Origin: Dromaius novaehollandiae
Lineage: Eukaryota > Chordata > Aves > Casuariiformes > Dromaiidae
DNA: 64,000 nt
Direction: 5' to 3'
Assembly (NCBI RefSeq): GCF_036370855.1
Contig: NC_088112.1
Location: forward strand, 16,546,469 to 16,610,468
Below, piece after piece: positions 8,101 through 62,600 of this stretch. The translations under genes and the position numbers were made by a program. A model generated the notes under the pieces. It did no database searches and was not told the origin of the DNA. It worked only from the letters and a program-made list of their open reading frames with translations. Every line of letters starts with the position of its first letter. Position 1 is the stretch's first letter.

Positions 8101-11100
8101 GTCTAGCAGTTGTTACTTTGTAAAAGAAACTGCTTGGCAAAAGCCTCAAACTGTCCTCCTCTTCACTCAGGGGAAGAGAACTGAATACACCATGTATTAT
8201 GTCTGTGTGTACGCAGGCGAATAAACATAACAGAGCATCCCAGAATTGAATCCTGTTAGTTAGCAGTTTGAGACTCTGGTATGTCCATCCTAGCTTGTTA
8301 AATTGCTTCACTGACTTCCACAGCCACTCTATCAGTGTGTTACCTTTTGCAGTAACCATACCTTCTTAGAAAAGTAGGCTAGGCTCTGCCCATGTATCTT
8401 AGAGAAGTGCTGTGGGTTCGCAGATCTTGCTGAATTTTGCTTGGAATGTTTGTTTTTCAAAAATCATTTTTAAAGCAACTCTATGCTATCTGCCTCCTTT
8501 TCAAGACTACTTTGCAAAAATGTTTCTGGAATTTGCTGTCCTGTATTGACCACCTGTATTGGGATGTTACTTAAAAGGCCACGGATAAGTTATTTTCCTG
8601 TCAAAATCTGACAAGGACAAATCTTTTCAAGGTATGTCAGAGAAGTGACATACAGCTTCTTCAGTGACATGAGAGTGTTAAAAGAATTTTTCAAAACATC
8701 CATCTTCTGCGTTTTTGTGCTAGTTGCCTGTCTTTACTGATAAGAGCTGAAATTTTACTGGCAATCCTACCTACCTATTTAAAGAGATCCTACTATTAGT
8801 GATGACACTAAACTGGAATTCTTTTTGACCCATTGTTACTTTTTTTTCCTTCTTTTTGTCACTAGGTTACCTTTGAGGGGTTCCTCATTTGTCTTCAGCA
8901 CCGCAGCTCAGCAGAGAAGTACAGGAGATGAGTGTGGCCCAGAAGATCCCCACGATGAGCCGAAGCATCCCCTTTCTGAACGTGCCTTAGAGCACAAAGC
9001 CATCAAATTGGAAGAACAAGTCCGTGATTTAACTGTGAGTATGCTATCAGAGTCTGTCTGCTGATGGCATCGTTACGCCTTTCGTTCAGTCCTCTTGATA
9101 TAGGAGACTGTCTTTGATCCCAAGCCTCCTCTGTAAGCATCGTAACATGCACCCAGCACCGCTGCACTGTGGCACCGTAAAAGTGGCTGTGCTCTAACTG
9201 TGAGAGGGTGCACTGTGAGAGAAGTACATCCTGCTTTCCCCAGAAACACCATCTGTCAGTAGGAGCAAGGCCCTGACAGTCTGATCCTGGATGGCAAAAC
9301 TGTATGCTCAAGATGGCCTGGTCAAACCTTTCACATCATTGTACAGGGAGAATGGCAGTAGTTTTGTCTTAACTAGCATCACATACTGTGACATACTGGA
9401 TCCAGATAGCCTGAGAAGGGAAATCATCTTTAGCTACAGTGGTGTGGTGGAAATGGTGGGAATTGTTTTATAGGGACTTTCAAGAATAGGTTTAACTAAG
9501 GAGAGGATTAAATATCGCAGCACTGGACAGTTCTGGAAATAATTGCCCTGAGAGTAATGAGATCTACTGCACTAAGAGATAAATCAGCTGATTGCAGATC
9601 TGTTGCTAAGACTGCCAGCTCTCCTGCTAGAGAAAGGAGCATCTCAATAGCTGCAGAGTGAGTCATGCAAAAAGCAGCAGCCTGACAATGCAGTGTTCAG
9701 CCGAGCTGTGTCCTGAATGCTTCTGGCCTTCACTTGGGCCCTTTGAGGGAGTTGTAGTTGTGCCGATTAATCAGTAAGGAGAGGAGCTTGGGTTTGCATG
9801 TTCTAGTGAGAACTCGTGACCCCTGCACTGTCGTCTTAGTTGAAGCGGATTTTTTTTTAAATAGTTTCTAAGGAATCGCAAACTTGACAGGAAATCAGTT
9901 TTCCTTCCTTGTCTGATACCTCCTCTTACTGTTACGGTTACAGGAGCGATACCGGAAAGCTTTGGCAGATTCTGAGAATGTCCGGAGGAGAACACAGAAA
10001 TTTGTGGAAGATGCCAAACTCTTTGGTAAGCAAAGTGAGGCAGAGCTGTGTTTACTGCAGTGGCCTGCCTGCCTGAGCATAAAATGCTGATCAACAGCTT
10101 TTCTCTCTGCATTCTCCTGGCCTTGTTCATTGTAAAGTCTGGCGTGATGTTTGGCCTGGACTGACGGGTGTCTGGGCTTACTAGCTGTCTTTTTTGTATG
10201 TCCAGCCGTGTCATGTTGGGTTTGTCTCAGTGACTGTTTTGTTACCTTCTTTTACTAAAATAGCTCTGGTACAGTTGAGTGTAGTTCTACTTACTTAACT
10301 GAAATCACAGTTTCTTCTGTATACTAAGAAATGGCACTTGGAGAATATATTCTGTACTCTCAGGTGTGTTAGCGGGTTGTGATCTCCTTTAGTGTGTTAA
10401 GAGCCCCTCCTCTTCTGCTCTGGTTTTTGTAGGCAGGTCCTGCCTGGGACAAAGGTTGTCAGTTCCTGTATCAAATGTTCTTTAAAATTTCCCTAATAAA
10501 TGTTTTGGTATTGATAAAGTGAGACAGATTTGTAGCTTTAGCAACTGATGTACTAAACAGGTGAAGAAGGAAAAAGCTGCTGTTTAATCACTGCACTCTG
10601 CCAGCACCATCTCTGAGAATGAGAAACTTTTATTCTCCATAATGCATTGATCTCAGAGTTTTTATTAGCTAATTCCAGTAGGGTCAGATTAGAACTGCTG
10701 TATTTTTTCTTTCTGTTCCACCCACTGTGCTATAAAATAGCTGTCGAGGTCATCCTAGATGACTTGTCTTGCTGGTTTTGGTTTTTTGAACTGTTTGACT
10801 TTTTTATATGCAATACCCTTTGGATTTGAAGAAAAATGAGGTTCTTTGTTAGAAGTTGCTCATGGGGTGAAGCATGGGGCTCTGTAGAGCATTAAAACAC
10901 TGGTGCTTCTGCTTCTGGCTGCTCCTGTGCAACTTCCTTCTCCTTCATGCTTTTTTCCTTCTATGCATGTTTAAACATGTATATGCAAGCGTAGACAGCA
11001 CCAAGTTATTGTTTCTCTTTCTCTGTTTTCCTTATGTGTTTTTTCCATAAGTTAGCTACGCTGTCTGTGTAATTGAGGGAGGCTGATTTTCTTGTAATTA

Positions 11101-12082
11101 TTGCACTGTGTAACATGCTGCTCCTAGAAATGTGTGCAACCTGAATCCAAAATATTAAAAAACTTTGTTTTCTAATGAAAAAGGCTGCATAACTTGAACA
11201 AACAACACAAGGACCATTTTGTCCAGTCCTTCCACAGTAGTTTTAACTTGTGAATGAATTTGTGGATATACTTTCGAATGGTCATGCATTGTATTTGCTT
11301 CCCCTTATTTGTTTTCTGTGTGCATGGACATTTATGTGAGTTGTTTGGCAAAATATTTTTTTCTTTGGACCTGTGTAAGAGAGTGTTCTGAATCACAAGT
11401 CTTAGTCACAAGAACTTCTTGAAGTGAAATATCAATAATCTTACTCTGCTCTGTCAGGTAGATTATATAATTGTTGTTCTTTATAGATGTGCCTTTCTTG
11501 CATATACTTTGATTTGGGGGGTCTCTAGGATACTATGCATATAATACTAAAGCTTTGGCTACAGGAGAGGCAAGCACCACCTGCTCTCATTGAAGCTGGA
11601 GCTAGGTAACAGCTTTCAAGATGTTTTGAAACTTCTGTGGCTTTGTGCCTGCCATTAGTACTGCAGCTCTGTCTGTTCTGTAGTTAAACTAACTTTCATT
11701 TACTTCTTGCTTCTTTGTGCCTGTAGGGATCCAGAGTTTCTGCAGGGACCTTGTGGAGATAGCAGATATCTTGGAGAAGACTGCTGAGAGTGCTGCGGGA
11801 GAAGCGGAGCCTAGTAATCCAAATCCAACCTTAAAGAAAATCTATGAAGGCCTCTCTCTCATAGAGGCCAAATTGCAAAGTGTATTTGCCAAACATGGCC
11901 TTCAGAAGATGAACCCTGTTGGTGGCAAATATGATCCATATGACCATGAAATAGTCTGCCATGTACCAGCTGAGGGAATGCAGCCAGGCACGATAGCGCT
12001 GGTGACTCAGGATGGCTATAAACTCCATGGGCGCACTATCAGACACGCACTCGTCGGTGTGGCAGTAGAGTCACAGGAATGA
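2189..12082 (+). CDS. GRPEL2: GrpE-like 2, mitochondrial Hsp70 nucleotide exchange factor
   Basis: Coding exons 2189-2265, 8866-9034, 9944-10025 and 11727-12082 join with GT-AG borders into 227 codons (human GRPEL2 has 225). The product releases ADP from mitochondrial Hsp70 (mortalin) in the matrix, supporting protein import and folding. Residues 1-38 are Arg/Ser-rich with no acid, as in a mitochondrial presequence. Residues 62-110 form the long charged helix used for dimerisation. The C-terminal beta domain includes KYDPYDHE (177-184) and GYKLHGRTIR (206-215), the GrpE signature region. GRPEL2 rather than GRPEL1 is shown by FSTA, EDP-DE, LSERAL and AVESQ, which match human GRPEL2. The ATG at 2189 opens exon 1 in frame (MAGRSLRAARQRF) and lies just downstream of the promoter boxes. 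The redox cysteine of human GRPEL2 (Cys87) is Ser92 here. Exon 1 ends inside codon 26, and the borders between exons 2-3 and 3-4 are also phase-consistent. Confidence 0.95.
2421..2470. repeat. Pentanucleotide microsatellite (CCGGA)n/(CCGAA)n
   Basis: Six perfect CCGGA copies (2421-2450) are followed by three CCGAA copies (2451-2465). It sits in the CpG island at the 5' end of GRPEL2 intron 1, about 155 bp after the donor site. Confidence 0.9.
2471..8865 (+). other. Remainder of GRPEL2 intron 1
   Basis: The CpG island fades by about 2750, after which the intron is AT-rich (T-runs, poly-pyrimidine stretches) up to the acceptor at 8861-8865. I see no coding exon, RNA gene or well-preserved repeat inside it. 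A GT-rich tract and a C-run at 2318-2350 lie just before the microsatellite. Confidence 0.6.
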
Positions 12083-18903: not shown

Positions 18904-19142
18904 ATGCGGGGCCTGGCCGCGGCCTCCCGGCTCAGACGTGGGTTTGAGCCCCGTGTGCTCCGCCGGGCAGCCCCGGCCCCGCGCCTGCTCCCCGGCGGCC
19001 GCCAGCCCGCGGGGCGCCGAGCCGGGCCGCCCGCGGCTCCCCGCCCGCCGGGGGCCGAGCCTGCTTTAAGGGGCGGGCCGGGGCGGGCGGGCGGTGCTGC
19101 CCGGCCCCGCTCGCCGCGCCGCGCCGCGCCGCCGTCCGCGCC
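18904..19142 (+). promoter_or_regulatory. PCYOX1L CpG-island promoter and 5' UTR
   Basis: Extremely GC- and CpG-rich sequence begins abruptly at about 18900. Overlapping GC boxes (GGGGCGGGCC, GGGGCGGGCG) lie at about 19069-19093, with a TTTAAGG just before them at 19064-19070. This is a typical Sp1-driven promoter immediately upstream of the start codon at 19143. The start site is probably between 19080 and 19130. Confidence 0.7.
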
Positions 19143-21833
19143 ATGGCCCCGCCGCCCGCCGTCCTGCTGCTGCCGGCCCTCGCCGCCCTCCTGGCCGGGG
19201 CCGCCGCCGCCGCCCGCGCCCCGCCGCGCAGCATCGGTAGGAGCGGGGGCAGCGGGGCGGATGCCCGCGGGCGGGGGCGGTTCGTGCCCCGCGGGGGCCG
19301 GGGGAGGCGGCCGGGGCCGGGGCGAGGCCGTCTGTCCGCGGCGGCCGCCCCCTCGGGGGCGCCGGGCTCACGCGCCGCTTCCCCCCTCTCTGCCGGCAGC
19401 CGTGGTGGGCGCCGGGATCGGCGGCTCGGCCGTCGCCTACTTCCTGCAGCAGCACTTCGGGCCGCAGGTGCAGCTGGACGTGTACGAGAAGGCCAGCGTC
19501 GGGGGGCGGCTGGCCACCGTCACCGTCAACAAGCAGCAGTACGAGAGCGGCGGGGCCTCCATCCACTCGCTCAACCTGCACATGCAGGACTTCGTCAAGA
19601 TCCTGGGTGAGTGTGCGGGCACGGCCGGGCCCCCCTGCGAGGAGCAGCCCCCGCTCGCCCGGCGCTGCCCTCCCTCCCCGATCCGAAAGGCTTCTGGGAC
19701 TTGCTTGCCTTGGGGAGGCTGGAGGGTGCTTCCAGGCTGCCGCAGCCTCCCCGGCTGCTTGGCAAACCCCTTTGCTGCCCGGCCCTGTTTCGTCTGTCCT
19801 GTGCTAGAGAAAGGGCTGGGGGTGGCCCAGCAGAGCACCAGCGGTGAGGGGTCCTGGCAGATCCCTGGTGCGGGGGTGGAGGGTCTGCAGGTCTCCATCT
19901 CCACAGGGCTGAGTGTGTGTGTCAGGCGGGTCCTGACCTGCAGCAGGTTGACTCCATGTGATGCCCCAACCTATGGGGATGCCCCATGCCTGAAGAACCC
20001 CAGGGTTTCACACTGAGCACATCCCTGATGTTTGAGGCATTTGTACCTTATCTTGTCCTCAGCTGGTTCAAGAGCAAAGAGCCCTGATGTAAGAGCAGGA
20101 TCTTTTATTTTACCCTCTGACCTACCCCTGTCCCCAGTGTGGAGGTACTTGGCACTGTTTTTTCCCAGCGGTCAGCCCACCCCGAGGTGCAGAGCAGAGC
20201 TCAGATGCTCGGCTGCAGAGGGAGTGCAAGGCAGGGTCCTTCTCCCTGCAGGCCTCAAGCACCGGCGTGAGGTGGCAGGGAAGAGCGCCATTTTCAGTGG
20301 GGAGCACTTCGTCCTGGAGGAGACAGACTGGTACCTGCTGAACCTCTTCCGGCTCTGGTGGCACTATGGGATCAGCTTCCTGCGCCTGCAGATGTGGGTG
20401 GAGGAGGTGATGGAGAAGTTCATGAGGTAGGAGAGCTGCAGGGCGGTGGGGGGACAAGGCCTTTTCTAGCACCGGGACTTCACATTCCCCTCGCAGCACC
20501 GTGCCTGTTCCTCTCGGGGAGAGCTGGGACTGGCTGGCAGCATGGAGGGGACGGAGGTTTCCTGTGCTTCTGTCGCCTCCAGGATCTACAAGTACCAGGC
20601 GTATGGCTATGCCTTCTCCAGCCTGGAGGAGCTGCTGCGCTCACTGGGGGGTGAGGCCTTTGTCAACATGACACAGCGCTCGGTGGCCGAGTCCCTGCTG
20701 GAGGTGGGTGTCACGCAGCGCTTCGTGGACGATGTCATCGCGGCCGTGCTGCGCTCCAGCTATGGCCAGTCAGTGCTGGTGCCCGCCTTTGCAGGTGAAA
20801 CTGGGGACACCCCCCCTTTTCCCTGTGTGACCTTCCGTCCTGGGGTCCCCTCTCCGGGCAGGGTATTGTGCTGGGGAGCCTGAGGCACCCTACTCTTCCT
20901 CTCCCCAGGAGCCATGTCACTGGCAGGGGCCCAGGGCAGCACATGGGCGGTGGAAGGAGGCAACAAGCTGGTGTGTTCAGGTCTGCTGAAGCTGACCAAA
21001 GCCAACGTAATCCCTGCCAGGGTGACGGGCATTTCTCTGCACAGCTCAGGTGAGGCTGGGCATGGGGGGTGGAGGGTGTGGGGTCTGGCCAGCCCCTGTG
21101 ATAGTAAAGGTGGGGGGCTGGAAGGCCAGGGCAATACAGGTAGAGGCTCAGGGCTGCCCACCTTCTCTTTTCAGAAGGGAGAGCCCTGTACCAGGTGCAC
21201 TACGAGGACGGCGAGGGCCAGGGCTCAGGTTTCTACGACATGGTGGTGCTGACAGCTCCCCTGCAACCCAGCAGGAGCAACTTCACCTTTCAGAACTTCG
21301 AACCGCCCATCACCGACTTCCCCGGTGCCTTCCAGCCCTCCGTCACCTCCGTGGTGCACGGCTACCTCAACTCCTCCTACTTCGGCTTCCCCGACCCCAA
21401 GCTCTTCCCCTTCGCCAGCATCCTCACGACTGACACACCCGACCTCTTCTTCAATGCCATGGACAACATCTGTCCTGTCAACATCTCCTCTGCTTTCCGT
21501 CGCAAGCAGCCCCAGGAGGCTGCGGTGTGGCGAGTCCTCTCCCAGCAACCGCTGGACAAGCAGCAGCTGAAGACCCTCTTCCGGTCCTACTACTCAGTGC
21601 AGGTTACAGAGTGGCAGGCATATCCCCACTACGACTCTGCCAAGTCCCTCCCGCCCATCGTGCTCCACGACAACCTCTTCTACCTCAGCAGCGTCGAGTG
21701 GGTGGCCAGCTCCATGGAAATGGTAGCTGTGGCAGCCAAAAATGTGGCCCTCCTGGCTTATAACCGCTGGTATCAGGACCTGGAGAAAATTGACCAGAAG
21801 GACTTGATGCACAAGGTGAAGACTGAACTGTGA
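19143..21833 (+). CDS. PCYOX1L: Prenylcysteine oxidase 1-like (PCYOX1L)
   Basis: Six exons (19143-19236, 19400-19606, 20252-20426, 20583-20794, 20909-21049, 21175-21833) join in phase into 495 codons (human 494). The product is a FAD-dependent oxidase-like protein of the prenylcysteine lyase family. Residues 1-24 form a leucine/alanine-rich signal peptide. The FAD-binding Rossmann motif GAGIGG lies at 35-40, with the ribose-binding acid at Glu61 and GGR at 66-68. Near-identity to human PCYOX1L includes [51 protein letters not shown] and the C terminus [16 protein letters not shown]-glycosylation sites are at Asn187, 312, 342 and 379, as expected for a secretory or lysosomal protein. Introns are short (114-645 bp). 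PCYOX1 itself oxidises prenylcysteine; the activity of the 1-like paralogue is less certain. The ATG at 19143 sits directly downstream of the GC boxes. Confidence 0.95.
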
Positions 21834-23652: not shown

Positions 23653-24556
23653 TCAGAAGATGCAGGTGCAGCCCACAGCGATGGTCTCCATGACTGTCTG
23701 GTACTTCTTCTGACACTTCTTTATGGAGGGCTTGTGCCCCACCTCACCCGGCACCTGGCAGAGCAGCCGACGGACAGGCAGCCGGCTGTAGATGGGAATG
23801 CTGGCCATGGTGCGATCCTCCTGCATTGTGAAGGGGTTGATGCAGCCAGTGCAGAGGCATCGGGCCTCAGGGATGTCTGCTGGGATCCGTGTTGCATCAT
23901 GGTTTATGCTGGAGGAGAGGAAAAGCAACATGAGGCTGGAGATACGGTGAGCCTGCCAGGTGAGGTTTGGGACAGTGGGCAGCTGGGACAAGCAGGGCAA
24001 TCCCTCCATGGGGTGAAATTGGGCACTGCGTCGCATTGCATCTCACCTCTCTGCAATTACAGCAGCCCTGGGGTGGCTCTATGATGCTGGAGTCATGGCC
24101 ACTGCAGGGCCCTGCTAGCACAGAGCCAGCGCTGCTCAGCCCTGCCCGAGAGAGCTCTGCTCCAAGCTCACCTGTAGGCCCAGGGGGACAAGCTTCTCTG
24201 GTTGGACCTCCAGAGCCTCAGGTTGACCTGGCACTTGGTGTCGCCCGGCTCGGAGCTGTTCTTGAGCTGGCGCACCATGTCCTGGATGCTCCGCTCGTAG
24301 TCCTCCATGGGGGTGTAGGTGTCATCCGGGGCCCAGGCCAGGGCAGAGGCAGCTGTGGGGGACCGTGCTGGCCCCCTTCTCCTTCCCTTCGCTCCCTTGC
24401 TTTGGTCCTTTGCTTCTGGGACCAGGACCATGGCAAAGGTGAAGATGCAGAAGAGAAGCTAAGGAGGAAGGAGGACGGTGCATGACTGCCCAGGCCCAGA
24501 GGGCTGACGTGCTCCCTATCTGGAAGGGCAAATCTCCCTACCTCAAATGGGTCCAT
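23653..24556 (-). CDS. IL17B: Interleukin 17B
   Basis: Three coding exons on the minus strand (24556-24542, 24458-24172, 23908-23653) join into 185 codons (human 180). The product is a secreted cystine-knot cytokine that signals through IL17RB. Residues 1-21 are a hydrophobic signal peptide (LLFCIFTFAMVLV), followed by a basic patch KGAKGRRRG. DYERSIQDMVRQLKNSSE, RSLSPWAYSINHD, INPFTMQEDR and the C terminus VMETIAVGCTCIF match human IL17B closely. Mature cysteines are at 81, 118, 120, 123, 151, 166, 181 and 183, the human number. A sequon is at Asn72. The loop between Cys151 and Cys166 (about residues 152-171) differs from human and is slightly longer. Exon 1 contributes only MDPFE and is inferred from a matching donor (GAG then GTAGGG), a phase-0 junction and the human arrangement MDWPHN then LLF. 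Exons 2 and 3 are certain and exon 1 is likely. Confidence 0.93.
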
Positions 24557-35264: not shown

Positions 35265-35475
35265 CCAAATTTAGAAGAAATATGAAAATTGTCAAGCAGC
35301 CCTTCCTTAGGGGGTAAAAGCAACACGGGGCCGAGCGGCCGCGGGTCAAGGCGGCGGCGCCACGTGACGGCCCCCCAGCCAATGGCTCCCCTCGGCGCCC
35401 CTGACAGATGCGGCCGTCGGCGGCCTGGCCTCCTTTCGCAGCTCATATAAGGTAAAAAGAAAAAGGTTTTTCCAG
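35265..35475 (+). promoter_or_regulatory. Promoter of the miR-143/145 host transcript (inferred)
   Basis: Ordered elements are a CArG-like CCAAATTTAG (35265-35274), an E-box/CRE-like CACGTGAC (35361-35368), a CCAAT box (35379-35383) and TATAAGG (35446-35452). The TATA box is embedded in TCATATAAGG, itself one base from a CArG box. The CCAAT-to-TATA spacing of 67 bp and the surrounding CpG island fit a real TATA promoter firing near 35475-35482. The strand and position point to the lncRNA that carries miR-143 and miR-145 (CARMN/MIR143HG in mammals), 12.6 kb downstream. The element matches are seen; the assignment is inference. Confidence 0.6.
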
Positions 35476-35477
35476 AT

Positions 35478-35616
35478 CCTGAGCGGCATGGAAGGAGTTT
35501 TCGCCGAGGACTCCCATGCCAGCTGCTTAAAAACCCCCGGCTGGCGCCGCCGGGGTCCCAGCGGCGGGTTATATGGGCAGGAGACGAGGCGGCGGCGTGG
35601 CCCTGGCACCCGGCAG
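35478..35616 (+). ncRNA. Probable first exon of the CARMN/MIR143HG-like host RNA
   Basis: This is the segment between the predicted start site (about 30 bases after the TATA box) and a strong splice donor, CAG then GTAGGT, at 35617. It contains a short open frame that runs on past the donor but encodes nothing recognisable. The mammalian host of miR-143/145 is a spliced, muscle-enriched long noncoding RNA. Downstream exons cannot be placed from sequence alone. Confidence 0.4.
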
Positions 35617-38600
35617 GTAGGTGCTGGCGGGACGGACGGATGGCGGGCCGAGGCGCTGCCAGACCTGGGAGCGGGGAGGTGGAGGAGAGGGCGGGCGGGA
35701 GGCAGGGGACAGCGCGGCCTTTCCAGCGCCCCGGGATGCTCGGCTGCTCCGAATCCGCTCCCCGCCTGGGAAAGGGGCTCCCCGGAGCAGCTGGCCGCGT
35801 GGAGGCAGGGGGAGGAGTTGCCTTTCGCTCCGTCGGACGGAAAAAGCTGGAAGTCCGCGGCCAAGGCTGGCTGCCTGCACGGGAAGCGGCAGCGGGGGCT
35901 GCTCCGGCGGCCGCCGCTTTCTTGGGAGAGGCTCCCCCGGGAAGGGCCGCGGCGGGACGTGCTCCTCGCCAGGCATTGGGGCCGCCGCGGAGCGTCCCAC
36001 CACCACCGGGCAAGGGGGAGCGGCCGGACGCAGGGAGGTCCTCGGGGCCCTCGAGGTTTTTCCTCGAGGACGCAGCCACCGAGAAAAGAGTGCGGTGCCC
36101 CCGGGGCGGCGCGTCCCCCTCCCCTTTCCAGTGCTCCCGCCGGTGCTGGCTGCTCCCGGGAAAGTCCAGCGTCTGGCGGGTGAGATGAGCCACATGGGCA
36201 CGGCGAGCCGACGTTGCGACATTTCCCAGGAAAGGCAGCGGCTGAGGCCCCGGCTCCGGGTGCGGGGAGGCTTGGGCCGCCGGCGGGCTGCGGCGGCTGG
36301 ACCCCATCGCTCCGGGTGTGAGGGCCTCGGCTCCGCCACCACCACCCCGGTGCGTTTGTTCTGCCTGTTTTGGTCTCTCTATCGTGGCCTCGTAGCGTTG
36401 TGCTTGTACGAGGTGTGTGTATGCGCACACCTGCACCGCTGTTATTTTGATATGTGCCAAAACTCAAAACAAAAGACGCTGAAATACTCCTCTGACCAAG
36501 CTCGGCCAGCTCACTCCAGGGTTTTGCCTTCGGACCTATCTGCTCCAGCGAATTTTGGTTTTTTTCCTCATGGAAAACTGAGCTGCCCCCATCCCTCCAT
36601 TCAGCCTCTCCCGGCTCCGTCCCTCCCTGCCAGCATTGTCCCCGCTGCTTTGCCAGTGGGGAAACCGAGGCACAGAGCTGGGCTGCTGCCCAAAGCGTGT
36701 CCTCTTCTCTGGCTGCCAGGGAAGCCAGTGCATTGCTACCGGCCAGACCTGGTGTCCCCATCCCCACGGCAGCACCCCCAGCCCCCCGCCCCCGGCTCCG
36801 GGGCTACCCTGCCCTCGCCTGCCCGGCTCCCCGCTCGGAGCGGCATGACGCTGCCAGGCAGTGCCGTTGCCTCCCCATCCCGGGCCCACAGGAGAGGAGT
36901 GAATTTCCAACAAACACAAAGACGCCTCCGCCAAAGCTTTCCCAAGCAGTTATCAGCAGGAATTTGGGGAAGGCTGTGTCTAGACAGGCTGCAGCTCTGG
37001 GTGGCTCCTGGACGGAGTGGCATTTCCCTCCACGCTTGTCAAGAGACAGTCTGGAGATGATTAAGGGCTCTTTTTTCTCGATCTCCTTTTCTTTTTTAGC
37101 CCTTGCTCCTGCTCAGGGCTTTCTGAGGCTTGTTCAGGCTCACTCCAAGCAAAATCTGCCTTTGCTCGTCCCCAGCTTTACTGGGAGACTCAGCATCACG
37201 GTGCTCTTCTCCTCTTAGGGCTGAGCCAAGCAGAGCCGGGTCTGTTTAGGGACGGCATTGAACTCTCTGGGGGCTTGTGAGAAGGGACCTTAATTATAAA
37301 TAACGCCAATGAGCAGTGCGTTTCGCTCCTTGGGCGAGAGCGGTCGCGTTAGCAGCATTGCTGGACACAGCTAGCTGCAGCATTTGCCGTGGCAGCGCGA
37401 GCTACTTCGGGCGCGGTGCACATGGGAGCTGGCCGGGGGCAACAGCTCCGTGCACACACGGGCGTGTGCTTTGGGCCACGATGGAGAGGCAAAGCCGGTA
37501 TGGGGCATGCTGGTGCAAGGGCCGAGTGCTCGGCCAGGTTTGGCCCAGCGGGTACGTCTGCAAGTGTGGGCCGGGCGAGCACGTGGGGCGCGCGGCGCGC
37601 TGGGGTGGCATGCGTCAGTGTCAGAGCACTCTGCCCGGCGCTTTAACCTGAGCGAGGGAGAAGGAACAAAAACTCGCCTTTGTGAGCGAGCTGGAGTCGA
37701 ATAGCACTCGATGAGGCAAGAGGCTGGAAATCTGAGCTCTGGAGCCATTTCACCATCCTTTGACCTTGGCCGAGAGCGCACACGCATGCACAAAGAGAAA
37801 GCGAGCGGAGCAGATACAGCGCGGGGGGAGGCACCCTGCCAGGGGGATGGAGGCGAACACACTTCCCTGTGGCTGCAGGCCAGCAGGGACTCAGCAAACG
37901 TTCAGGCCACCGATGCTTGGAGCCCTTTCGCCTACCCCGGGGCCGGTGCGCACTCGCGGCATTGGTCTCGGCACTGCCTCTGTACCGCTGGGGCGTGCAG
38001 CTCATGCCTTTTCTGCGGTGGAGGACGTGTCCAGCACCCTCACGATGCCTCCAGAGCCAGGGCGGGTGGGCGCACCGCGAAGCAGCAGGCGCCTGCTCCT
38101 GGGTCCCGCGGAGGCTGGGGCGACCAGTGCTGCGGGGGTGAGTGGGGCCGGACTCCAGGCAGCTCAGCTCGGGCTGCTGGGACCGAGCGTCTTACCGTCT
38201 TTGGGGCCGGGAAGCAAGGATGAGGGATGAGGCCATACGGGCTGGGGAGGGCCACCCCACCGTGCCAGCGAGAAGGTGGCCTCTGCAAGGCCCTGCTGGA
38301 GGGGCAGCTTGCCCCGTGCTGGGAGTCAATCTAGGGATGGTCATGCAGCCCATGGAGATGAGCAGGCACTTCTGGAGGGCCAGAGAGCCCCCGGCGCCAG
38401 CGCTGTGCCTGTGTTCGGGTGTGTGCATGAGTTCCGCGGGGGTACGGACATGCACTCACAGGAGGGCTCTGCATGTCGTTTGGGCGAGCCAGACAGGGCG
38501 AGCTTTCACGAGGCTCCTTCTGAGGTGGCACATTGACACAGCAGGTGCTGAGCATCTATGCCTTTCGTGTCTGGGTATCTCTGAAGCAGAAAAAGGACTG

Positions 38601-41500: not shown

Positions 41501-41510
41501 CCAAATTTGG
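41501..41510 (+). promoter_or_regulatory. CArG box 1 (SRF site)
   Basis: CCAAATTTGG is a perfect palindromic CC(A/T)6GG box, followed directly by CTATTTCTCC. SRF with myocardin is the established activator of miR-143/145 in smooth and cardiac muscle, and this box lies 6.6 kb upstream of miR-143. Only one other perfect CArG was found between IL17B and miR-143. Confidence 0.65.
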
Positions 41511-41771
41511 CTATTTCTCCCTCAGTCTGGCAACAGGAGACGGGCTGCGTGCCCGGGGGAAGGAGCGCAAACCAGATGCATCCTTTCCCCTCTGCACCCA
41601 TCCCCTGCGCTAAGACTCCAAAAAAGCCCCCCAAACCTGCTCCTTTGTTCTTGGCATTATAATTTATCCCAGCAAAACCCACAGAGAAAGAGCAGCATCC
41701 CCCTGGGCCCCCTTGGCTCGCCCCCAGCATGGGAGATCTGGGCCGCACCGTCTCCAAATCTGCCTTTTTGA

Positions 41772-41781
41772 CCATAAAAGG
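41772..41781 (+). promoter_or_regulatory. CArG box 2 (SRF site)
   Basis: CCATAAAAGG is a second perfect CC(A/T)6GG box, 271 bp after the first. Paired CArG boxes are the usual arrangement in smooth-muscle enhancers. Confidence 0.65.
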
Positions 41782-41829
41782 GCAGGCATTTTGCAGCCAT
41801 GGCGGGAGGATGGGAAAGGAAAGGCAGAG

Positions 41830-41839
41830 CTATTTATAG
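41830..41839 (+). promoter_or_regulatory. MEF2 site
   Basis: CTATTTATAG is a perfect palindromic MEF2 consensus (YTAWWWWTAR), 49 bp after CArG box 2. The following 110 bases contain more A/T-rich motifs (GGGTTAATCAG, GATTAGGATC, ATGATTTAAAACC). The whole 41500-41950 block looks like a compact muscle enhancer. Confidence 0.65.
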
Positions 41840-48069: not shown

Positions 48070-48171
48070 GCGCTCTTCCATGTCTCCCAGCCCAAGGTGC
48101 AGTGCTGCATCTCTGGTCAATTGGGAGTCTGAGATGAAGCACTGTAGCTCGGGAAGGGAGGAACTCTGCGC
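48070..48171 (+). ncRNA. miR-143: microRNA miR-143 hairpin
   Basis: The stem-loop closes with GCGC at both ends and carries CTTCC opposite GGAAG and CTCCC opposite GGGAG. The 3p mature RNA lies at 48130-48150 (seed GAGAUGA) and the 5p RNA at 48096-48116. As I recall the human sequences, both mature RNAs are identical, with differences only in the loop and lower stem. miR-143 acts with miR-145 to keep vascular smooth muscle contractile and represses factors such as ELK1. Its position between IL17B and the expected CSNK1A1, on the opposite strand to IL17B, matches mammals. Confidence 0.97.
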
Positions 48172-48915
48172 CGTGGGGCAGCCCTGCCAGGAGACCCACG
48201 AGCCGTGGGGTGCCACACCGTGTCATGCCTCACAAGGGAGACAGTTGCAAGCAAAGCACGTGGGGCTGGGCAGCAAGACTGGAAACCAATGCGGCAGCAC
48301 GCACTCATGGAGGCCAGGGCTCAGGAGCATTTCTTAGGGCATCAGTTAGCCAGGAGGGCCTTTGCTAGGGGTCTGCCCCCTTCCTCCTGCCAGTCTCTAG
48401 ACCTATGTCCCCCCCACAGTGGCAGAGCAGGGCTCTCCCAGCCCCGCTCATGCTTTGGACCCCCCCCCCCCCGCAATCTCAGGGTGGGTGGGGGGATGAC
48501 AGAGCACTGAGGAAGTAGCCTGAAGACTACCAGCAGGTCTCCAGGGCATCCTACTGCAGGCTCTTGGGAGCCAAGGTTACCGAGCCCCGGCTATGGGGCA
48601 GGGATCGCCCCATAGCTTCGTGTCGCACAGAGGGGAAGAGGAGGGATTAGCAGGGAGGTGCAGGGTGGGAGGAGGTTCCTCCTTGTGACAGAGGCCTCCT
48701 TGTCAGCTCAGGTCTCACCACGAGAGGTGGGGGGAGGATCCCCACCAGGTGCTGGGCACCAGCAGGAGGGAGGTGCACAGGAGCGTGGGAGCCTTGTGTG
48801 GCGGGGTGCTCCGTGGGGACAGCAGGGACGAGACAGCAGCACCCCCAGCAGCCACACACAGAGCCAGCTGGAGGACAGAATGCTCTGGGACTGGAGCTGG
48901 TGGAGAGCCAAGGTC

Positions 48916-49001
48916 GCCGTGCCCTCAGGGTCCAGTTTTCCCAGGAATCCCTTAGGCACTATGTTGGGGATTCCTGGAAATACTGTTCTTGGGGCCACGG
49001 C
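48916..49001 (+). ncRNA. miR-145: microRNA miR-145 hairpin
   Basis: The stem-loop starts GCCGTG and ends CACGGC. The 5p mature RNA lies at 48930-48952 (seed UCCAGUU) and the 3p RNA at 48968-48989, both identical to the human mature sequences as I recall them. It lies 0.75 kb downstream of the miR-143 hairpin on the same strand, so the two are processed from one primary transcript. miR-145 targets KLF4, KLF5 and myocardin-pathway genes in smooth-muscle differentiation. Confidence 0.97.
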
Positions 49002-49346
49002 TCGGCAGCCGGAGACAGTCTGTCCCTCAAGGGGAGCCAGAGCCTTCAGAAGAGTCGCAGACCAAGGTACGGCACCATTTCTGGGCATTTCTGGGGGCTG
49101 TCAGTGGGAGGTGGGAGCCCGCAGACCTTCAGGTACCCCAAATATGGGGAGCTGCACAACCTGACCCAGAGAGCTCCAGCTCCCCAGGCCTGGGGATGAC
49201 AGATATCCCCCTGGGCCACAGCTCATCACGGGAGGACACCGCTGGCAAGCAGATGGCCTTTTGCTCCTCTTCTGCCCTTTGCTGCCCTCCAAGAGGAGCA
49301 GCTCTCCCCCAGGGCCCTGTCTATGTCACTTAGCCACCATTGTGTC

Positions 49347-49379: not shown

Positions 49380-50171
49380 TGGCCATTTCTTTGGGGCTGG
49401 GAGCAGGGCAGGAGCGACAGCATCGTGAGCGTGGGGCAGCACGAGACACCCAGTACATCGTCCCTGCTGCTGCTCAGCAACACACATGTCCTGGGCAGCC
49501 CCCGCCTTGGCCAGGAGCTGGGATCTCTCCCGAGACCGTGGGGCTCTGCAGCCTGTCCTGGGTGATCAGCATCTGCCCAGCGTTAAACAAATCCCTCAGC
49601 AATACCAGCGTCTTGGCTCCCACCTGGCCAGGGCCGAGCACCGAGTGCTGGGAGAGTCACAGCCTGCAAAGCCTCCTCTTCCTCTGGGCTCTCTCCCCAA
49701 GGCATCTGTGGCCTCCCTCCGGCACCACGGCTGCAGCCCCCCAGCTCGGTTGAGCCCCCCAGCTTGGCTGAGCCCCCCAGCCTTGGAGCATGAACACGAA
49801 GGGGAGCTCCCGGGATTGCAGGAGGGGGGAACAGACCTGGGGGGGGGGGTTACCCCACCCCCGGGCTCAAGGCCACAGTGCACTCAAGGGACATGTCCTC
49901 TCTAGACACCTGCCACCTTTCCACCACTTCTCCCCCCATGCTGGCACCAGGTGGCCCCGGTTGGTGCTGCCAGCCCTGCTCTGCGCCCCCAGGCCACAGG
50001 GCTGCACCCCGTCCCCAGCCCTGCCGCCCCGTTCAGCGGAGCAGAGGCACCCGGCGGGGGCTGCCCGCCACCCCGTGCCCCAGGGCTGGGCTCAGGGGCG
50101 GCAAGGGGAGGGCAGTTAAACCACCACGGTGCCTGCTCTGCCCCAGCGCCCACGGCTGTACAGGATTCAGG
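49380..50171. other. Noncoding DNA downstream of the microRNAs
   Basis: No gene recognised. It contains a short GAGCCCCCCAGC-type repeat near 49735-49785 and a G-run at about 49841-49850. Confidence 0.45.
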
Positions 50172-50945
50172 GGCAGGATGGAGGCGCAGGATGGAGGCAG
50201 GTGCAGCTTGGGGATTCAGCATGAGGCAGGCACGGTTTGGAGGCACAGGATGAGGCAGGCGCAGTTTGCGGGCGCAGTTTGGAAGCACAATTTGGAGGCG
50301 CAGTTTGGAGGCATGTGTAGTTTGGAGGCAGGTGCAGTTTGGAGGTGCAGTTTGGAGACAGGAGCAGTTTGGAGGCGCAGTTTGGAGGCAGGCGCAGTTT
50401 GGAAGCAGGTGCAGTTTGGAGGCGCAGTTTGGAGGCAGGCGCAGTTTGGAAGCAGGTGCAGTTTGGAGGTGCAGTTTGGAGGCAGGTGCAGTTTGGAGGC
50501 GCAGTTTGGAGGCAGGAGCAGTTTGGAGGCAGGAGCAGTTTGGAGGCACAGTTTGGAGGCAGGCGCAGTTTGGAGGCAGACGTAGTTTGAAGGTGCAGTT
50601 TGGAGGCAGGAGTAGTTTGGAGGTACAGTTTGGAATCAGGCGCAGTTTGGAGGTGCAGTTTGGAGGCAGGCGCAGTTTGGAGGCAGGAGCAGTTTGGAGG
50701 TACAGTTTGGAGGCAGGCGCAGTTTGGAGGTGCAGTTTGGAGGCAGGAGTAGTTTGGAGGTGCAGTTTGGAGGCAGGAGTAGTTTGGAGGTGCAGTTTGG
50801 AGGCAGGCGCAGTTTGGAGGTGCAGTTTGGAGGCAGGAGTAGTTTGGAGGTACAGTTTGGAGGCAGGCGCAGTTTGGAGGTACAGTTTGGAGGCAGGCGC
50901 AGTTTGGAGGCAGGACCAGTTTGGAGGCAGGCGCAGGCAGGCAGC
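50172..50945 (+). repeat. GCAGTTTGGAGG minisatellite (30-bp higher-order unit)
   Basis: About 44 copies of a TTTGGAGG core occur. Two alternating subunits, GCAGTTTGGAGGT (13 bp) and GCAGTTTGGAGGCAGGM (17 bp), make a 30-bp unit that is nearly perfect from about 50690 to 50910. The first part is more degenerate. Because 30 is divisible by three and the unit has no stop, several frames on both strands stay open. These yield long false proteins with WRxSLEAG, QFGGxVWRQ or NCTSKLRLPP repeats. Confidence 0.95.
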
Positions 50946-51996
50946 GTGGCCGGGCGGGCGGACGGACGGCAGGTGGCAGTGCTGCCTAGCCCGCAGCAGG
51001 CAGGGCCACGCTGCCCACCCCTGCCAGCCATGCCGGCCCCGGGGGGAGCCAGGGCCGCCAGGAACCCCCAGGGCACCCTCACCACATGCATCTCCGTAGC
51101 CGCACCGTGGCGAAGTTCGGGGTGGCCAGGCTGGGCGCTTTCGCCGGCCGGGGTGCGCGGGGGCCACCTCGGGTGACCCACCGTGGCCGGGGCGCTGCCG
51201 CAGCAGAGCCAGCTTTGCACGGAGGAAGGTGTGAGGCTTGCACAGAGGACTCAGAGCTCTGCTTGGAGAGACAGAACGGGGCACTGGGCTGATGCACTTA
51301 GGTTTCCAGAAGCTCCCAGTTTGGCCCGGCATGCCCGGGCCACGCAGCAACGAGGCACTGGCTCCCTGTCCGGCGTTGCTGGGACGGGGCAAAGCAGACC
51401 CTTGGGCAAACGCGCTGCAGGGGGGCCCTGGCCAGGGGCACGGCTCACCTCCGCCGTCGGTTTAGGAAAGGGGGTCAGCCTCTCCCCCCCCAGCCCTTGG
51501 CGGGCTGGAAATGCCCAGGCCTGAGCTGTCACCCTCCACCAGGACGGTGACCTCCGGACATGGAACACAGCCGGCAGAGACGAGGGCAATGAGATCCCGC
51601 TTGGGGCGACCGCCCCCAAACCCCAGCACACGCTGCTCTGGGGGCGGGAAACGGCAGCTCTCGCCAGGGAAATTCGGGGGACGTCAAAAGTTCTTCCTGC
51701 CCTGAACAGGGAGGAAAAGTGGAAATTGCAAAAACTTTCTGGAAATGACAGGCCAAGAAACCCCCCTGCAATTGCAGCTTTGGTCTGGGGTGAGTCCAAC
51801 TGCTCTGTTTCAACCATTTCCAAGCAGTTTGTTTTGATTTCGATTGTTTGGGGGGGATTACATGACATTCGGTTGCAGGATGGAAAGCCAGTTCTCTCTC
51901 TCACACACACCCAAATTAAAAAAATATGGCACTTAGTTCAGGAAATGCCAACCCAGAGCATTTTGATTGTTTCCTTCTTTATTTTTCCCCTTTTTT

Positions 51997-52062: not shown

Positions 52063-52223
52063 ATAAGAGAGATTTGGTTTGGCCCAAATTGGCAATTTTT
52101 TGCCAAAAAGACCCATTTAATTGAAGAATCCCTGACCCGCCCCCAGCCTACCAGTAAAACAGCTGCCCCAGCAACTGCGGAGAAACAACTGCCTCCTCCT
52201 CGTTAATAAAACAGGGTTGGGTT

Positions 52224-54420
52224 TTGTCTCCCCACGTTCCACTAGCAGCTTTCATCCTGGGCTATTGCAAAGTCTGCCCGGGTGACGGCACCATGAAACG
52301 CAGCCGCCCCTGGGGTGGAGAGCGGAAACCAGGCGGTCAGCAGAATATCGTGGCGGGGGACACTTTGGACTCTCGGTGCCTCCCGTGCTCCGGGTGCACC
52401 GGGTGCGGAGGGTACCTGCCTCTCCCAGCAGCTCTGGGCGTGAAGCCGGGAGCGCTGACCCATTTCCCTGCTAGGAAAACTGAGGCAGAGATGGCACGTC
52501 TGCCCCTTGCCTCGAGACCGTTGCCTTGCTCACAAAACCCGCCCTGTCCTGGTGCAGGAGAAGCTCCAGCACTGTTCTGGTGCCCGCGCCAGCGCAGCCG
52601 AGCGGCGAGGGAGAGGCAGAATGCGGCCAAGCCAGCTCGCCCAGCCGGGGAAAGGCCGCGTGCCCCAGACTTGCGGGCGGCCGCATTTATTTCTCCCTTA
52701 CCCCTCGCAGGACACAAATGCGAGGTTTGCAGCTCGCTAGAAACCCGGAGGGCTCCGGGGGATGTCCCAGCAGCCCCGGCAGGCGAGGCCAAGGGAGGCC
52801 AGCACGCTCCCTTTTTTGGGCAGCTTGCTTCTCCCTCTGCCCCGCCGCGATTCCTGCAGCGTTACCGCCTTTGCAGGAGCTCGGCAGCCGCGAACCCTCC
52901 CCTGCCCGCGGGGGCTGCCCGTTCGCACCGCTCCTGCCTCCTCCCAGGCCACACGTGGGGTGCCGCGACCCCCAAAATGGGGGCCGATCCTGCGGGGGAA
53001 GAGGAAGGGAGCTGGGACCAGAGCAACCGGGCCCCCTGCTCCATGCATGGCCCTTTCTGGGCTGACGAGAGGCTGGCACAGCCCCGGCTTGGGGACGCGG
53101 CCCTGCTGCCCCACGATGGGGATGGGCACGGCAGTGCGTTACGCGGAGGCCAGCACATCGCCAGGGGGGCCGCGTGCCCCCTCCCTCTGGCTCCAGCGGG
53201 GTTTAACAGCAGCCCCACGCTGCGCCCCGCTCCCGCACGTGATCCGCCGGCAGCTGGGGGAACCGCGGGAAAGTATCTCCGCGCTTCCCGAACAGGCAGC
53301 AGCAATCGGCTTAGCGCTAATCCCCCCCACCCATGTCCTCTGCTGGCCTCCGGGGGGGCCCAGGCGAAGCCACCAGAGGCAGCACCCACCACGCTGTCAT
53401 CCCGCGCCAAGGCCTGCGGGGATGTGGGGACAGGGCTGAGCGAGGGCAGCGGTGAGCCAGCCCCGTGCAGGCCGCGGGCTGAGCCGGGCCCCGGGAGTGC
53501 GGGCGTCCCCGGAGGCCTGACGAGGCAAGGATGGGCTCGGGCACCCCTGCCCCAAGCAGCACCCGCCGGAGCGTGGGAATCGGAGGGGCTCCGCGCTGCA
53601 GAGTCAGCGCCCGGGGAAAGCGGTGCCAAGGTCCCGGCGCGTTGCCCCGGCCCGCCCGGCGCGGGAACAGCCTACTCAGGAGGCGCCGGCAGGCGAGGAC
53701 GCCGCCTCGGCGAGGGAGGGGTGCATGGGGCTCCCCCTCCACCGCCGGGGCGCACCCGGCCCCGGGGGGGACACGGCGGCGCGCGCTCAGCCCGTGGGAC
53801 GCACGCATGCCTCAAAGCCCCTCCGTCAGCATCTCCCGGGCCGTCCCACCCCAGCGAACCGGCTGAGCGGCTCGGGGCCCGCGGCGTGGGCAGGCCCGGC
53901 TGGCGTGGCGCTGCCGGAAACATGGGAGAGCAAAACGCACCCAGAGAGGCAGGGGAGGCTCCCGACACCTTTCCCCTCTCTCCTTCCCCCCGGGGCAGGA
54001 GCCAGCTTTGATGCTTCTCCAGCAGCGCTGCCCTGAGAGCAGAGACCGTGCACAGCTCGCTGCACGAGCCCCTAGCTCCTTACCGACGCCAGGGCTGGCT
54101 CAGCCCGGGCACAGGCTCCCCTGCTCCCCTTGCCCAGATCACCTCGGGGCTGCTGCAGATCAATATTGATTCAACGCGCACCTCGGCCGCGGGCCGGGCT
54201 CCGGCCTTATCTCACCACCTCCTCCCTGGAAGGGACCCAAGCTCGGCAGCAGGGCTGAGCGCGCCAGGCCAGGGAGCAGCATTAACCCCTTCCCCAGGCC
54301 GGCCGGGGTCAGCTCCCACAGGCAGAGTGGCTGCGAGGGGGTCGCGCCCACCTGCCGCGGGGGTACCGGGGCTCCCGTCTGCAGCGAGGAGCCTCTCAGA
54401 CCTCTCTGCAACGGGTTAAG
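52224..54420. other. CpG-rich block with long ORF of doubtful reality
   Basis: GC- and CpG-rich sequence with the longest open frame of the window (52224-54011, +, 595 codons). The predicted protein is Ala/Pro/Gly/Arg-rich, has no recognisable domain or signal peptide, and overlaps open frames in other phases. The block could instead be a CpG-island regulatory region. I do not call a gene. Confidence 0.4.
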
Positions 54421-56934
54421 TACATAACCGCATCCATCGGAAGACCGATACGCCTTCCCTCCCTCTCACGTAACAGCCGCAAGACTCCTGCTTTTACTAT
54501 CTTCTTGCAGATGAGCAATGGTCACTCCCGTGCATCACCGCTGAGAAAGAGTTCGTCCAGACCTGCCCTTCCTGGCTCCACGCAGCATCAACCAAAACCC
54601 CGGAGCCAGAGACAAGCATCTGGAGCTGCTGCAGCCAAAACGCGTTTCGTCACTCAGCCTTGCAAAAGACCTCACAGCTCCTGAAATCGGTCTGTCCAGG
54701 CTAAAAGGACTAGGAGAAATTGGAGCAACTTTGTGCTCGCCCTCAATTAGTGAGTGACCTATTTAGCAGAAATCTGGGCTAAGTGAAGAAGGGAGCCAGG
54801 AGTCGTCGCTTAGGGGTGGCGTGGTTGAAAACACTCCAAGTCTCAGCAGAGGAGCTTCAGTTTCACATGGGAGAGAGAAGCCAGTTCTGAGTGTTTTTAG
54901 AAAACCCCTAGAAGTTTTTACAGCTGGGGGAGAAAAATCCAGTCTGGAGACAACTTCATGCTACTGGATATTTCCCTTTTTGCAAAAACACAGCACTGGC
55001 AAAAGTTTGGCTCGTCTCCTACACATTAAGACAAGGACAAGCACTGGCCTGAAGGGCAGCTAGTGGCCACAGTCCTCCTGCAGTACCTTAGCTCTGCTGC
55101 CATGTTGAAATCATCATCCATTCCACAGAGATGGCCCCAAAACATCTCAAAGCTCAAATAGCTGTTTGAGGCCAGACCTTTGCGACGAGGGACAAAGCCT
55201 CACTGCCGCGGCCGCTCCTTCCTGAGCGCTCACAAATCATCCCTCCTGCGGTTTTAGTTTCTACCCTCTCAGCATCTTCCAAACCAGGACGGCAGGTCTG
55301 AGGCAGGATACGTGGATTACAGGCTCAGAAAGCACAACAGGCTTTTCAGTCAGACCTGTCTTCCCCATCACAGCTCCCAAGCGGGCTAGACACGCCAACA
55401 AAGCCCAAGTGGGAGAAGCAGCATTTCCCTCCCAACACCCTGGTACAAATGTCCATCGAGGACATTTCCCTGCCTTCCCAGAGGTACCAACACAGCTTGA
55501 GGCAGGGCTGAGACACACTGAGGAAACCAAAGGGAGTTCAAAACAGTTTTTCTGGGATGATTTTTAACGAGAATGGGTTACCTGGCCTGGTTCACTGCAT
55601 TTGCACCAGTGGCCATCTCAGCACCATGGAAGGGATGGGTCATGGGCAGGAGGAGCTGCCAGGACCCTTCCCAGGAGCACGTACTGACTCCAGCTCAGCA
55701 AGGCTTCTGCTGGCCCCTGAGCATCCCTCCCCAGCATGTTGGTGAGGGCACCGCAGCCAGCCCAAAGCCTCCCTCCGCCACCTCCTCTGACAGCCCGCAC
55801 AGACTAAACCACTCAGCCTGACCACAGCAAAGGGCAACCCTGCCGGGGACAGCTCCAGGTCTGGTGGGAGCGCTGCACTGCAGCATGGACCACTGACCTC
55901 CTCCCAGGGCCCACCAGCACGGGAACGGCCCCCTCCAAAAGCCAGGGCTTGAAGCTGCTCTTTGGGGCTCAGCCAGCCCCAGCCCCACAGGGCAGGTACA
56001 GTGAACAGGGGAGCAGGCAGTCAGGTCGGCTGTGACGCAGAGGCGCTCGACTCCGCTCCTGCAAGAGGCCGTAGAGAACGGCCGCAGGAAGGAGGAGCTG
56101 GGCTGGAGACAGCTCTCCCTCCCCGAGGGACAAGTCACCCTGTGCCACCCGAGCACGAGGCGCTGCGTGGAAAATGAGTCCCCCCCCCAGCCAGCGCTGA
56201 GCCAAAGGCTTCTAATCCTCTTTGCTCTCTACGCACAGCAGGGCGGTGAGGTGAGACAGCGGGGAGGTAGACGGGCCTCAAGCCACCGTGCACTCCTGAA
56301 GGAGCACAAGGCACCTCTGGAGACTAGGAGCAGGCGTTCTCGTTGGACAGAAGAGCTGGAGTAAGCGCTCGCTGGATGAAATCCTGCCAATAGCAGGAGT
56401 GGTGTTTCAACTTGATGGTAGCTTTGAAAGGTAGGTGTTGGTCCTACCCAGCAAATGCATTAGAAGTGCTTATCTAACCAGACATGCGAGTCAGATGTAT
56501 CTCTCCTCCTGGAGAAGGTACTGCCTCCAAGTTGGCAGATTCCCCTTCAGCAGTGGAGCTTGGGAAAGCCAATTGCCCTGGACAAACCTCAACAGGATCA
56601 GAGACTGCACCTGAGGGCCTCTTTGCAGGAAGGAGACTGGGTAGCAGTTCACAAGTTTGAAGCCAAAGCACTTCCCACGCTGCTCTCGGCTTCCCATCAG
56701 CAACACCTCCACACTGCAGCTATCGGGCAAAGCCAGGCTAAAAGCTAGGGATTTGCCATGACAGTTCTGATGCGAACTAAAGCAATGAGCAGCTTATTCT
56801 CTCTTCAGAGCCATCTGAAAGAAAAGCTGTGTGATTTCCTGAGCTGAAGTGCAGGGACGCAGGAACTGGGCAGCGGGGGGTTGAGAAGGCAGCCAGACTG
56901 AGTTACATTATCCAGCAAAGATAAAATAGTCTCT
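54421..56934. other. Intergenic DNA, no gene recognised
   Basis: Balanced-composition DNA between the GC-rich block and the first minus-strand poly(A) candidate. Nothing recognised in coding, RNA or repeat terms. Confidence 0.4.
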
Positions 56935-62526: not shown

Positions 62527-62600
62527 ATCATAGGAATATTCAGGCCGGAAGGGACTGCAGGAGGTCATCTAGCCCAACCTCCTGCTCAAAGCAGCGTCAG
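62527..62600 (-). mobile_element. CR1 LINE 3' fragment
   Basis: ATCATAGGAATATTCAGGCC, GGAAGGGACTGCAGGAGGTC, ATCTAGCCCAACCTCCTGC and TCAAAGCAG follow in order the reverse complement of the CR1 3' end, the dominant LINE of birds and other sauropsids. This is a 5'-truncated fragment of only about 74 bp with no coding capacity. The ATCATA end is at the low-coordinate side, so the element runs on the minus strand. Confidence 0.85.

What the first reader, a model, noticed from the sequence alone, without database searches (positions are those of the whole stretch)
48070..49001. Intact miR-143/miR-145 cluster with apparently unchanged mature RNAs
Both hairpins are present on the same strand 0.75 kb apart. 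Mature arms (5p and 3p of each) equal the human ones as I recall them, while loops and flanks differ. This fixes the locus identity and means the GC-rich 24.6-49.4 kb desert is the host-transcript and control region rather than empty DNA.
Basis: partly seen in the sequence, partly recalled or inferred. Interest (0 to 1): 0.7.

Follow-up and report, generated by a model that had tools for sequence, protein, structure and literature searches.

The report
Ordinary miR-143/miR-145 microRNA gene cluster
[quoted passage not shown] that is expected, and the only extra is a candidate muscle control element a few kilobases upstream.

Summary
Rfam places mir-143 at 48081-48164 and mir-145 at 48916-49001, both + strand, each over the full model (E 2.4e-26 and 3.3e-21). 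GRPEL2, a PCYOX1L-like exon and IL17B lie upstream; CSNK1A1 coding sequence was not found. Unchanged mature RNAs are expected (PMC8306979). The further claim, that the GC-rich 24.6-49.4 kb is host transcript and control region, does not follow from the hairpins and is only partly supported. Two SRF (CArG) boxes and a MEF2/TATA-like site lie within 339 bases at 41501-41839, 6.2-6.6 kb upstream of mir-143; such a triplet occurred in 0 of 300 shuffles in each of three schemes, though the statistic was chosen after a first scan. Ten long open frames, nine in the stretch, had no Pfam match. No RNA data and no second vertebrate genome were available. An ordinary locus: new member of a known kind, with one testable control module.

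The parts
48081..48164 (+). mir-143 precursor hairpin
   Evidence: Rfam RF00683, full model 1-84, 107.9 bits, E 2.4e-26; fold z -5.28
48096..48117 (+). miR-143-5p, identical to the human mature sequence as recalled
   Evidence: exact match, once in the window
48130..48150 (+). miR-143-3p, identical to the human mature sequence as recalled
   Evidence: exact match, once in the window; 2-nt 3' overhang at the Drosha end
48916..49001 (+). mir-145 precursor hairpin
   Evidence: Rfam RF00675, full model 1-86, 96.6 bits, E 3.3e-21; fold z -6.86
48930..48952 (+). miR-145-5p, identical to the human mature sequence as recalled
   Evidence: exact match, once in the window
48968..48989 (+). miR-145-3p, identical to the human mature sequence as recalled
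   Evidence: exact match, once in the window; 2-nt overhangs at both ends of the duplex
41501..41839 (.). candidate SRF/MEF2 control module: CArG boxes at 41501-41510 and 41772-41781, MEF2/TATA-like site at 41830-41839
   Evidence: motif scan, sequence; such a triplet in 0 of 300 shuffles in each of three schemes. Function inferred
49138..49147 (.). third CArG box of the region, 137 bases past the end of the mir-145 match
   Evidence: motif scan; a single site, could be chance
23656..24458 (-). IL17B coding pieces (23656-23907 and 24174-24458)
   Evidence: tblastn with a typed human IL17B, E 8.2e-31 and 5.9e-19; Pfam IL17 for 23656-23907, 3.4e-22; no Pfam match for 24174-24458
19402..19599 (+). 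PCYOX1L-like exon (dinucleotide-binding domain)
   Evidence: Pfam NAD_binding_8, 3e-9, in the open frame 18796-20013; the gene name rests on recall and gene order
8876..12076 (+). GRPEL2 coding pieces (8876-9037, 9947-10036, 11726-12076)
   Evidence: tblastn with a typed human GRPEL2, E 9.5e-12, 8.7e-10 and 3.5e-52; Pfam GrpE for 11726-12076, 2.6e-29; no Pfam match for 8876-9037, and 9947-10036 not scanned

Best explanation
This is the orthologous miR-143/145 locus of a vertebrate, most likely a non-mammalian amniote. Both hairpins would be cut by Drosha and Dicer from a + strand primary transcript, the counterpart of CARMN/MIR143HG, transcribed away from IL17B. The products would repress smooth-muscle phenotype-switch targets as in mammals. 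Expression is probably driven in part by SRF with myocardin at the CArG pair 6.2-6.6 kb upstream. Shown here: hairpin identity, arm identity (against recalled human arms), duplex geometry, upstream gene order. Inferred: the transcript, its start, SRF control, targets and the clade. The confidence given is for the identity of the locus and its hairpins; for the SRF module alone I would say about 0.6.
For: Rfam full-length matches. Exact arms and 2-nt overhangs. Possible Microprocessor features (recalled motifs): CNNC starting 16 (mir-143) and 17 (mir-145) bases past the 3p arm, TG at -15 for mir-143. Gene order GRPEL2, PCYOX1L-like, IL17B, then the hairpins; PCYOX1L, IL17B and CSNK1A1 are named as neighbouring genes of the human host gene in the Figure 2 legend of PMC2903500 (parts 1 and 2 of 3 read; their order is recalled). 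The CArG/MEF2 triplet fits the SRF/myocardin control through a CArG box described for the conserved 4.2 kb promoter region (PMC6395947, passages).
Against: No RNA reads, no second vertebrate genome and no transcript model could be examined. CSNK1A1 coding sequence was not found in the window with a typed human query at E up to 1, so the downstream neighbour is unconfirmed. The TG nearest mir-145 sits at -10, not near -14. Three or more CArG boxes in the stretch came up in 17, 19 and 11 of 300 shuffles, so their number alone is unremarkable. NKX2-5-type sites are fewer than expected (3 against 7.5) and RBPJ-like sites near expectation (6 against 4.7).
Confidence: 0.95

Rival explanations
1. The hairpins are genuine but the 24.6-49.4 kb stretch is mostly neutral GC-rich isochore DNA, with at most one or two short control elements, and the host transcript starts close to the hairpins. 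(Compatible with the best explanation as to the hairpins; it rivals the reader's view of the stretch.)
For: CpG-rich patches are scattered (12 in the stretch) rather than forming one promoter island. Only one dense CArG/MEF2 cluster was seen. In human a 1.9 kb transcript carrying miR-145 exists besides the 11 kb host transcript (PMC2903500).
Against: In human and zebrafish the hairpins lie in a long noncoding RNA (PMC8306979). The human locus interval given there begins at 149,406,689 and miR-145 at 149,430,646, about 24.0 kb apart; if that start is the CARMN start and the scale were kept, the start here would lie near 25 kb, just past IL17B.
Confidence: 0.45
2. The hairpins are a non-functional relic or a retroposed copy.
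For: None found; expression was not testable.
Against: All four arms intact, Drosha-end overhangs kept, both hairpins on one strand, upstream genes kept. A whole-genome check for other copies did not complete.
Confidence: 0.02
3. The CArG/MEF2 triplet is a chance feature of a local AT-rich patch.
For: The window at 41751 is ninth among the AT-richest 200-base windows listed for the stretch. Two CArG boxes within 400 bases occurred in 11, 4 and 2 of 300 shuffles. MEF2 sites exceed shuffles elsewhere in the stretch too, 5 in all. MEF2 was added to the statistic after the first scan.
Against: The full triplet occurred in 0 of 300 shuffles in each of three schemes. SRF was chosen from the literature on this locus.
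Confidence: 0.25

Closest known systems
Human/mouse MIR143-MIR145 cluster in host gene CARMN (MIR143HG)
   Same: Both hairpins on one strand, all four mature arms (as recalled), IL17B and a PCYOX1L-like gene nearby
   Different: Shorter gap: 751 bases between the Rfam matches against about 1.3 kb stated for human (PMC2903500); loop and outer-flank letters differ from the Rfam consensus; host transcript not shown here
Zebrafish miR-143/145 cluster in BX088707.3 (PMC8306979)
   Same: Clustered hairpins; seeds reported as 100% conserved among the vertebrates compared there
   Different: Zebrafish DNA was not compared here

Membership tests
mir-143 (Rfam RF00683) | full-length match above the gathering score | tested here: met
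   107.9 bits against 60, model 1-84
mir-145 (Rfam RF00675) | full-length match above the gathering score | tested here: met
   96.6 bits against 50, model 1-86
animal microRNA precursor | hairpin more stable than shuffles, with arms paired and 2-nt 3' overhangs | tested here: met
   z -5.28 and -6.86; Drosha-end overhangs of 2 in both, loop-end overhang of 2 in mir-145; in mir-143 the first base of the 3p arm is unpaired, so the loop end is not clear
animal microRNA precursor | small-RNA reads from both arms | not testable with these tools
   no reads are held
miR-143/145 locus | both hairpins on one strand within about 1-2 kb | tested here: met
   751 bases apart, both +
miR-143/145 locus | PCYOX1L and IL17B upstream | tested here: met
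   IL17 and NAD_binding_8 Pfam matches and tblastn for IL17B; the name PCYOX1L and the human gene order are recalled
miR-143/145 locus | CSNK1A1 downstream | tested here: inconclusive
   no coding match up to the window end; the coding part may lie beyond it
CARMN host lncRNA | spliced transcript across both hairpins | not testable with these tools
   no RNA data
SRF-controlled smooth-muscle element | CArG boxes upstream of the cluster | tested here: met
   two within 281 bases at 41501-41781
SRF-controlled smooth-muscle element | SRF binding and CArG-dependent activity | not testable with these tools
   no binding or reporter data

The most novel reading that the evidence does not exclude
The module at 41501-41839 is not only an enhancer but a smooth-muscle promoter. 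The second CArG box ends about 50 bases before a TATA-like palindrome (41830-41839), as in smooth-muscle actin-type promoters (recalled). This would start a + strand primary transcript about 6.2 kb upstream of mir-143, separate from a long CARMN-like start.
Probability: 0.12. Interest if true: 0.35.

Novelty: new member of a known kind. Interest (0 to 1): 0.15.

Why it matters
It fixes the identity of the locus and adds one more vertebrate, probably a non-mammalian amniote, with unchanged mature miR-143 and miR-145. The CArG/MEF2 module gives a concrete place to test whether SRF control of the cluster is older than mammals.

Tried and rejected
Other RNA families: a permissive Rfam scan (E up to 1) of 24400-60000 gave only the two hairpins and their weaker antisense matches, 48.8 and 45.6 bits, below gathering score. 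Hidden protein genes: ten frames chosen from the 40 longest listed (nine within 24.6-49.4 kb, one at 52158-54008) gave no Pfam match at E up to 0.01. The other frames were not scanned, among them the third longest, 49905-51461, which overlaps the minisatellite; short exons would be missed. tRNAs: 0. The PDB search with the IL17B piece returned 3 distinct sequences, all IL-17F, E about 1e-4, so the B identity rests on the typed query and on gene order. A CR1-type repeat tail as clade marker: the motif count was no better than chance (2 found, 1.55 expected; one perfect match at 62560-62572), so turtle or crocodilian origin is recall, not a result. Other motifs in 24501-49400 against 60 random first-order Markov sequences: NKX2-5-type 3 against 7.5, RBPJ-like 6 against 4.7, p53-type 8 (four palindromes counted on both strands) against 22.9, FOX-type 3 against 0.5. 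Primary papers on the mammalian enhancer were not held, so I rest on the review PMC6395947 (passages only). Passages of PMC11006735 speak of SRF binding by CARMN and NRF2 at its promoter, none that I saw of a CArG box in the CARMN promoter. Passages of PMC6868825 said nothing on a chicken CARMN. Paper searches were otherwise seen as listings.

Full report
Observation. The Rfam scan of the whole window at gathering threshold returned two matches only: mir-143 at 48081-48164 and mir-145 at 48916-49001, both + strand and both over the full model. In the minimum-energy folds the 5' end of each 5p arm pairs two bases inside the 3' end of its 3p arm, the Drosha-type overhang. miR-145 also has a 2-nt overhang at the loop end; in miR-143 the first base of the 3p arm is unpaired. 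Stability of the Rfam spans exceeds shuffles: 1 of 200 (mir-143) and 0 of 200 (mir-145) fold as well. The longer mir-143 span is less striking, z -3.20, 2 of 200.

Surroundings. A tblastn with typed human proteins found GRPEL2 pieces on + (8876-9037, 9947-10036, 11726-12076) and IL17B pieces on - (23656-23907, 24174-24458). CSNK1A1 gave no match at E up to 1, and a third, weak IL17B match at 52640-52750 (E 0.70) is taken as chance. Pfam, given five pieces, found IL17 (3.4e-22) and GrpE (2.6e-29) in one piece each and a dinucleotide-binding domain in the frame 18796-20013 (3e-9); two of the five had no match. I read that frame as PCYOX1L from recall and gene order. PCYOX1L, IL17B and CSNK1A1 are named as neighbours of the human host gene in a figure legend of PMC2903500 (parts 1 and 2 of 3 read).

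Is it surprising? No. The mature sequences are described as remarkably conserved among vertebrates, with seeds 100% conserved, from miRBase sets of 30 (mir-143) and 25 (mir-145) species, named as mammals, amphibians and teleosts (PMC8306979, passages, section 3.1). Both microRNAs are reported from soft-shelled turtle gonads (PMC7322844, passages), and miR-145 is among families named for alligators, other reptiles and birds (PMC13290405, passages). The gap of 751 bases is shorter than the 1.3 kb stated for human (PMC2903500).

The desert. From 25 to 49 kb GC is 56-70% per kilobase, with 12 separate CpG-rich patches between 24.6 and 49.4 kb. Nine long open frames in it, and one at 52-54 kb, have no Pfam match. 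In 24501-49400 there are three CArG boxes (0.7 expected; 0.8-1.0 in the block shuffles, where three or more came up in 17, 19 and 11 of 300) and five MEF2-type sites (0.03-0.13 expected; five or more in 0 of 300 in each scheme). Two CArG boxes and one MEF2/TATA-like site fall within 339 bases at 41501-41839. Two CArG boxes within 400 bases came up in 11, 4 and 2 of 300 shuffles for blocks of 200, 500 and 1000 bases; the triplet in none of them. The triplet statistic was chosen after the first scan, so these figures flatter it. Two Smad-type palindromes (36978 and 49354) were also seen; the scan counts each on both strands, 4 against 0.2 expected. NKX2-5-type and p53-type sites were fewer than expected.

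Mechanism. The likely course is the mammalian one: a CARMN-like + strand transcript, SRF/myocardin activation through CArG boxes, Drosha and Dicer processing, and repression of phenotype-switch genes in smooth muscle. The hairpin geometry is shown; the rest is inference from mammals (PMC6395947, passages, and general knowledge).

Clade. The two IL17B pieces are 62% and 44% identical to the typed human protein, which argues against a mammal, and a short repeat tail near 62.55 kb looks like CR1 to me. Both readings are inference. The species was not determined.

Noticed in passing
50168-50936: Minisatellite of about 30-base units (about 25 copies, 76% matches) about 1.2 kb past mir-145.
   Followed up: no
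52176-54825: Three adjoining CpG-rich patches with a 617-residue open frame at 52158-54008 and no Pfam match; a possible unassigned promoter.
   Followed up: partly
34451-36700: Longest CpG-rich patch of the desert; a candidate promoter of a host transcript, untested.
   Followed up: no
36978 and 49354: Two Smad-type palindromes (GTCTAGAC) in the stretch, more than expected.
   Followed up: no
1569-2012: Tandem array of about 94-140-base units near the start of the window.
   Followed up: no
62540-62600: Repeat-like tail resembling a CR1 element as known in turtles and crocodilians (recalled; one perfect 13-base match at 62560).
   Followed up: partly
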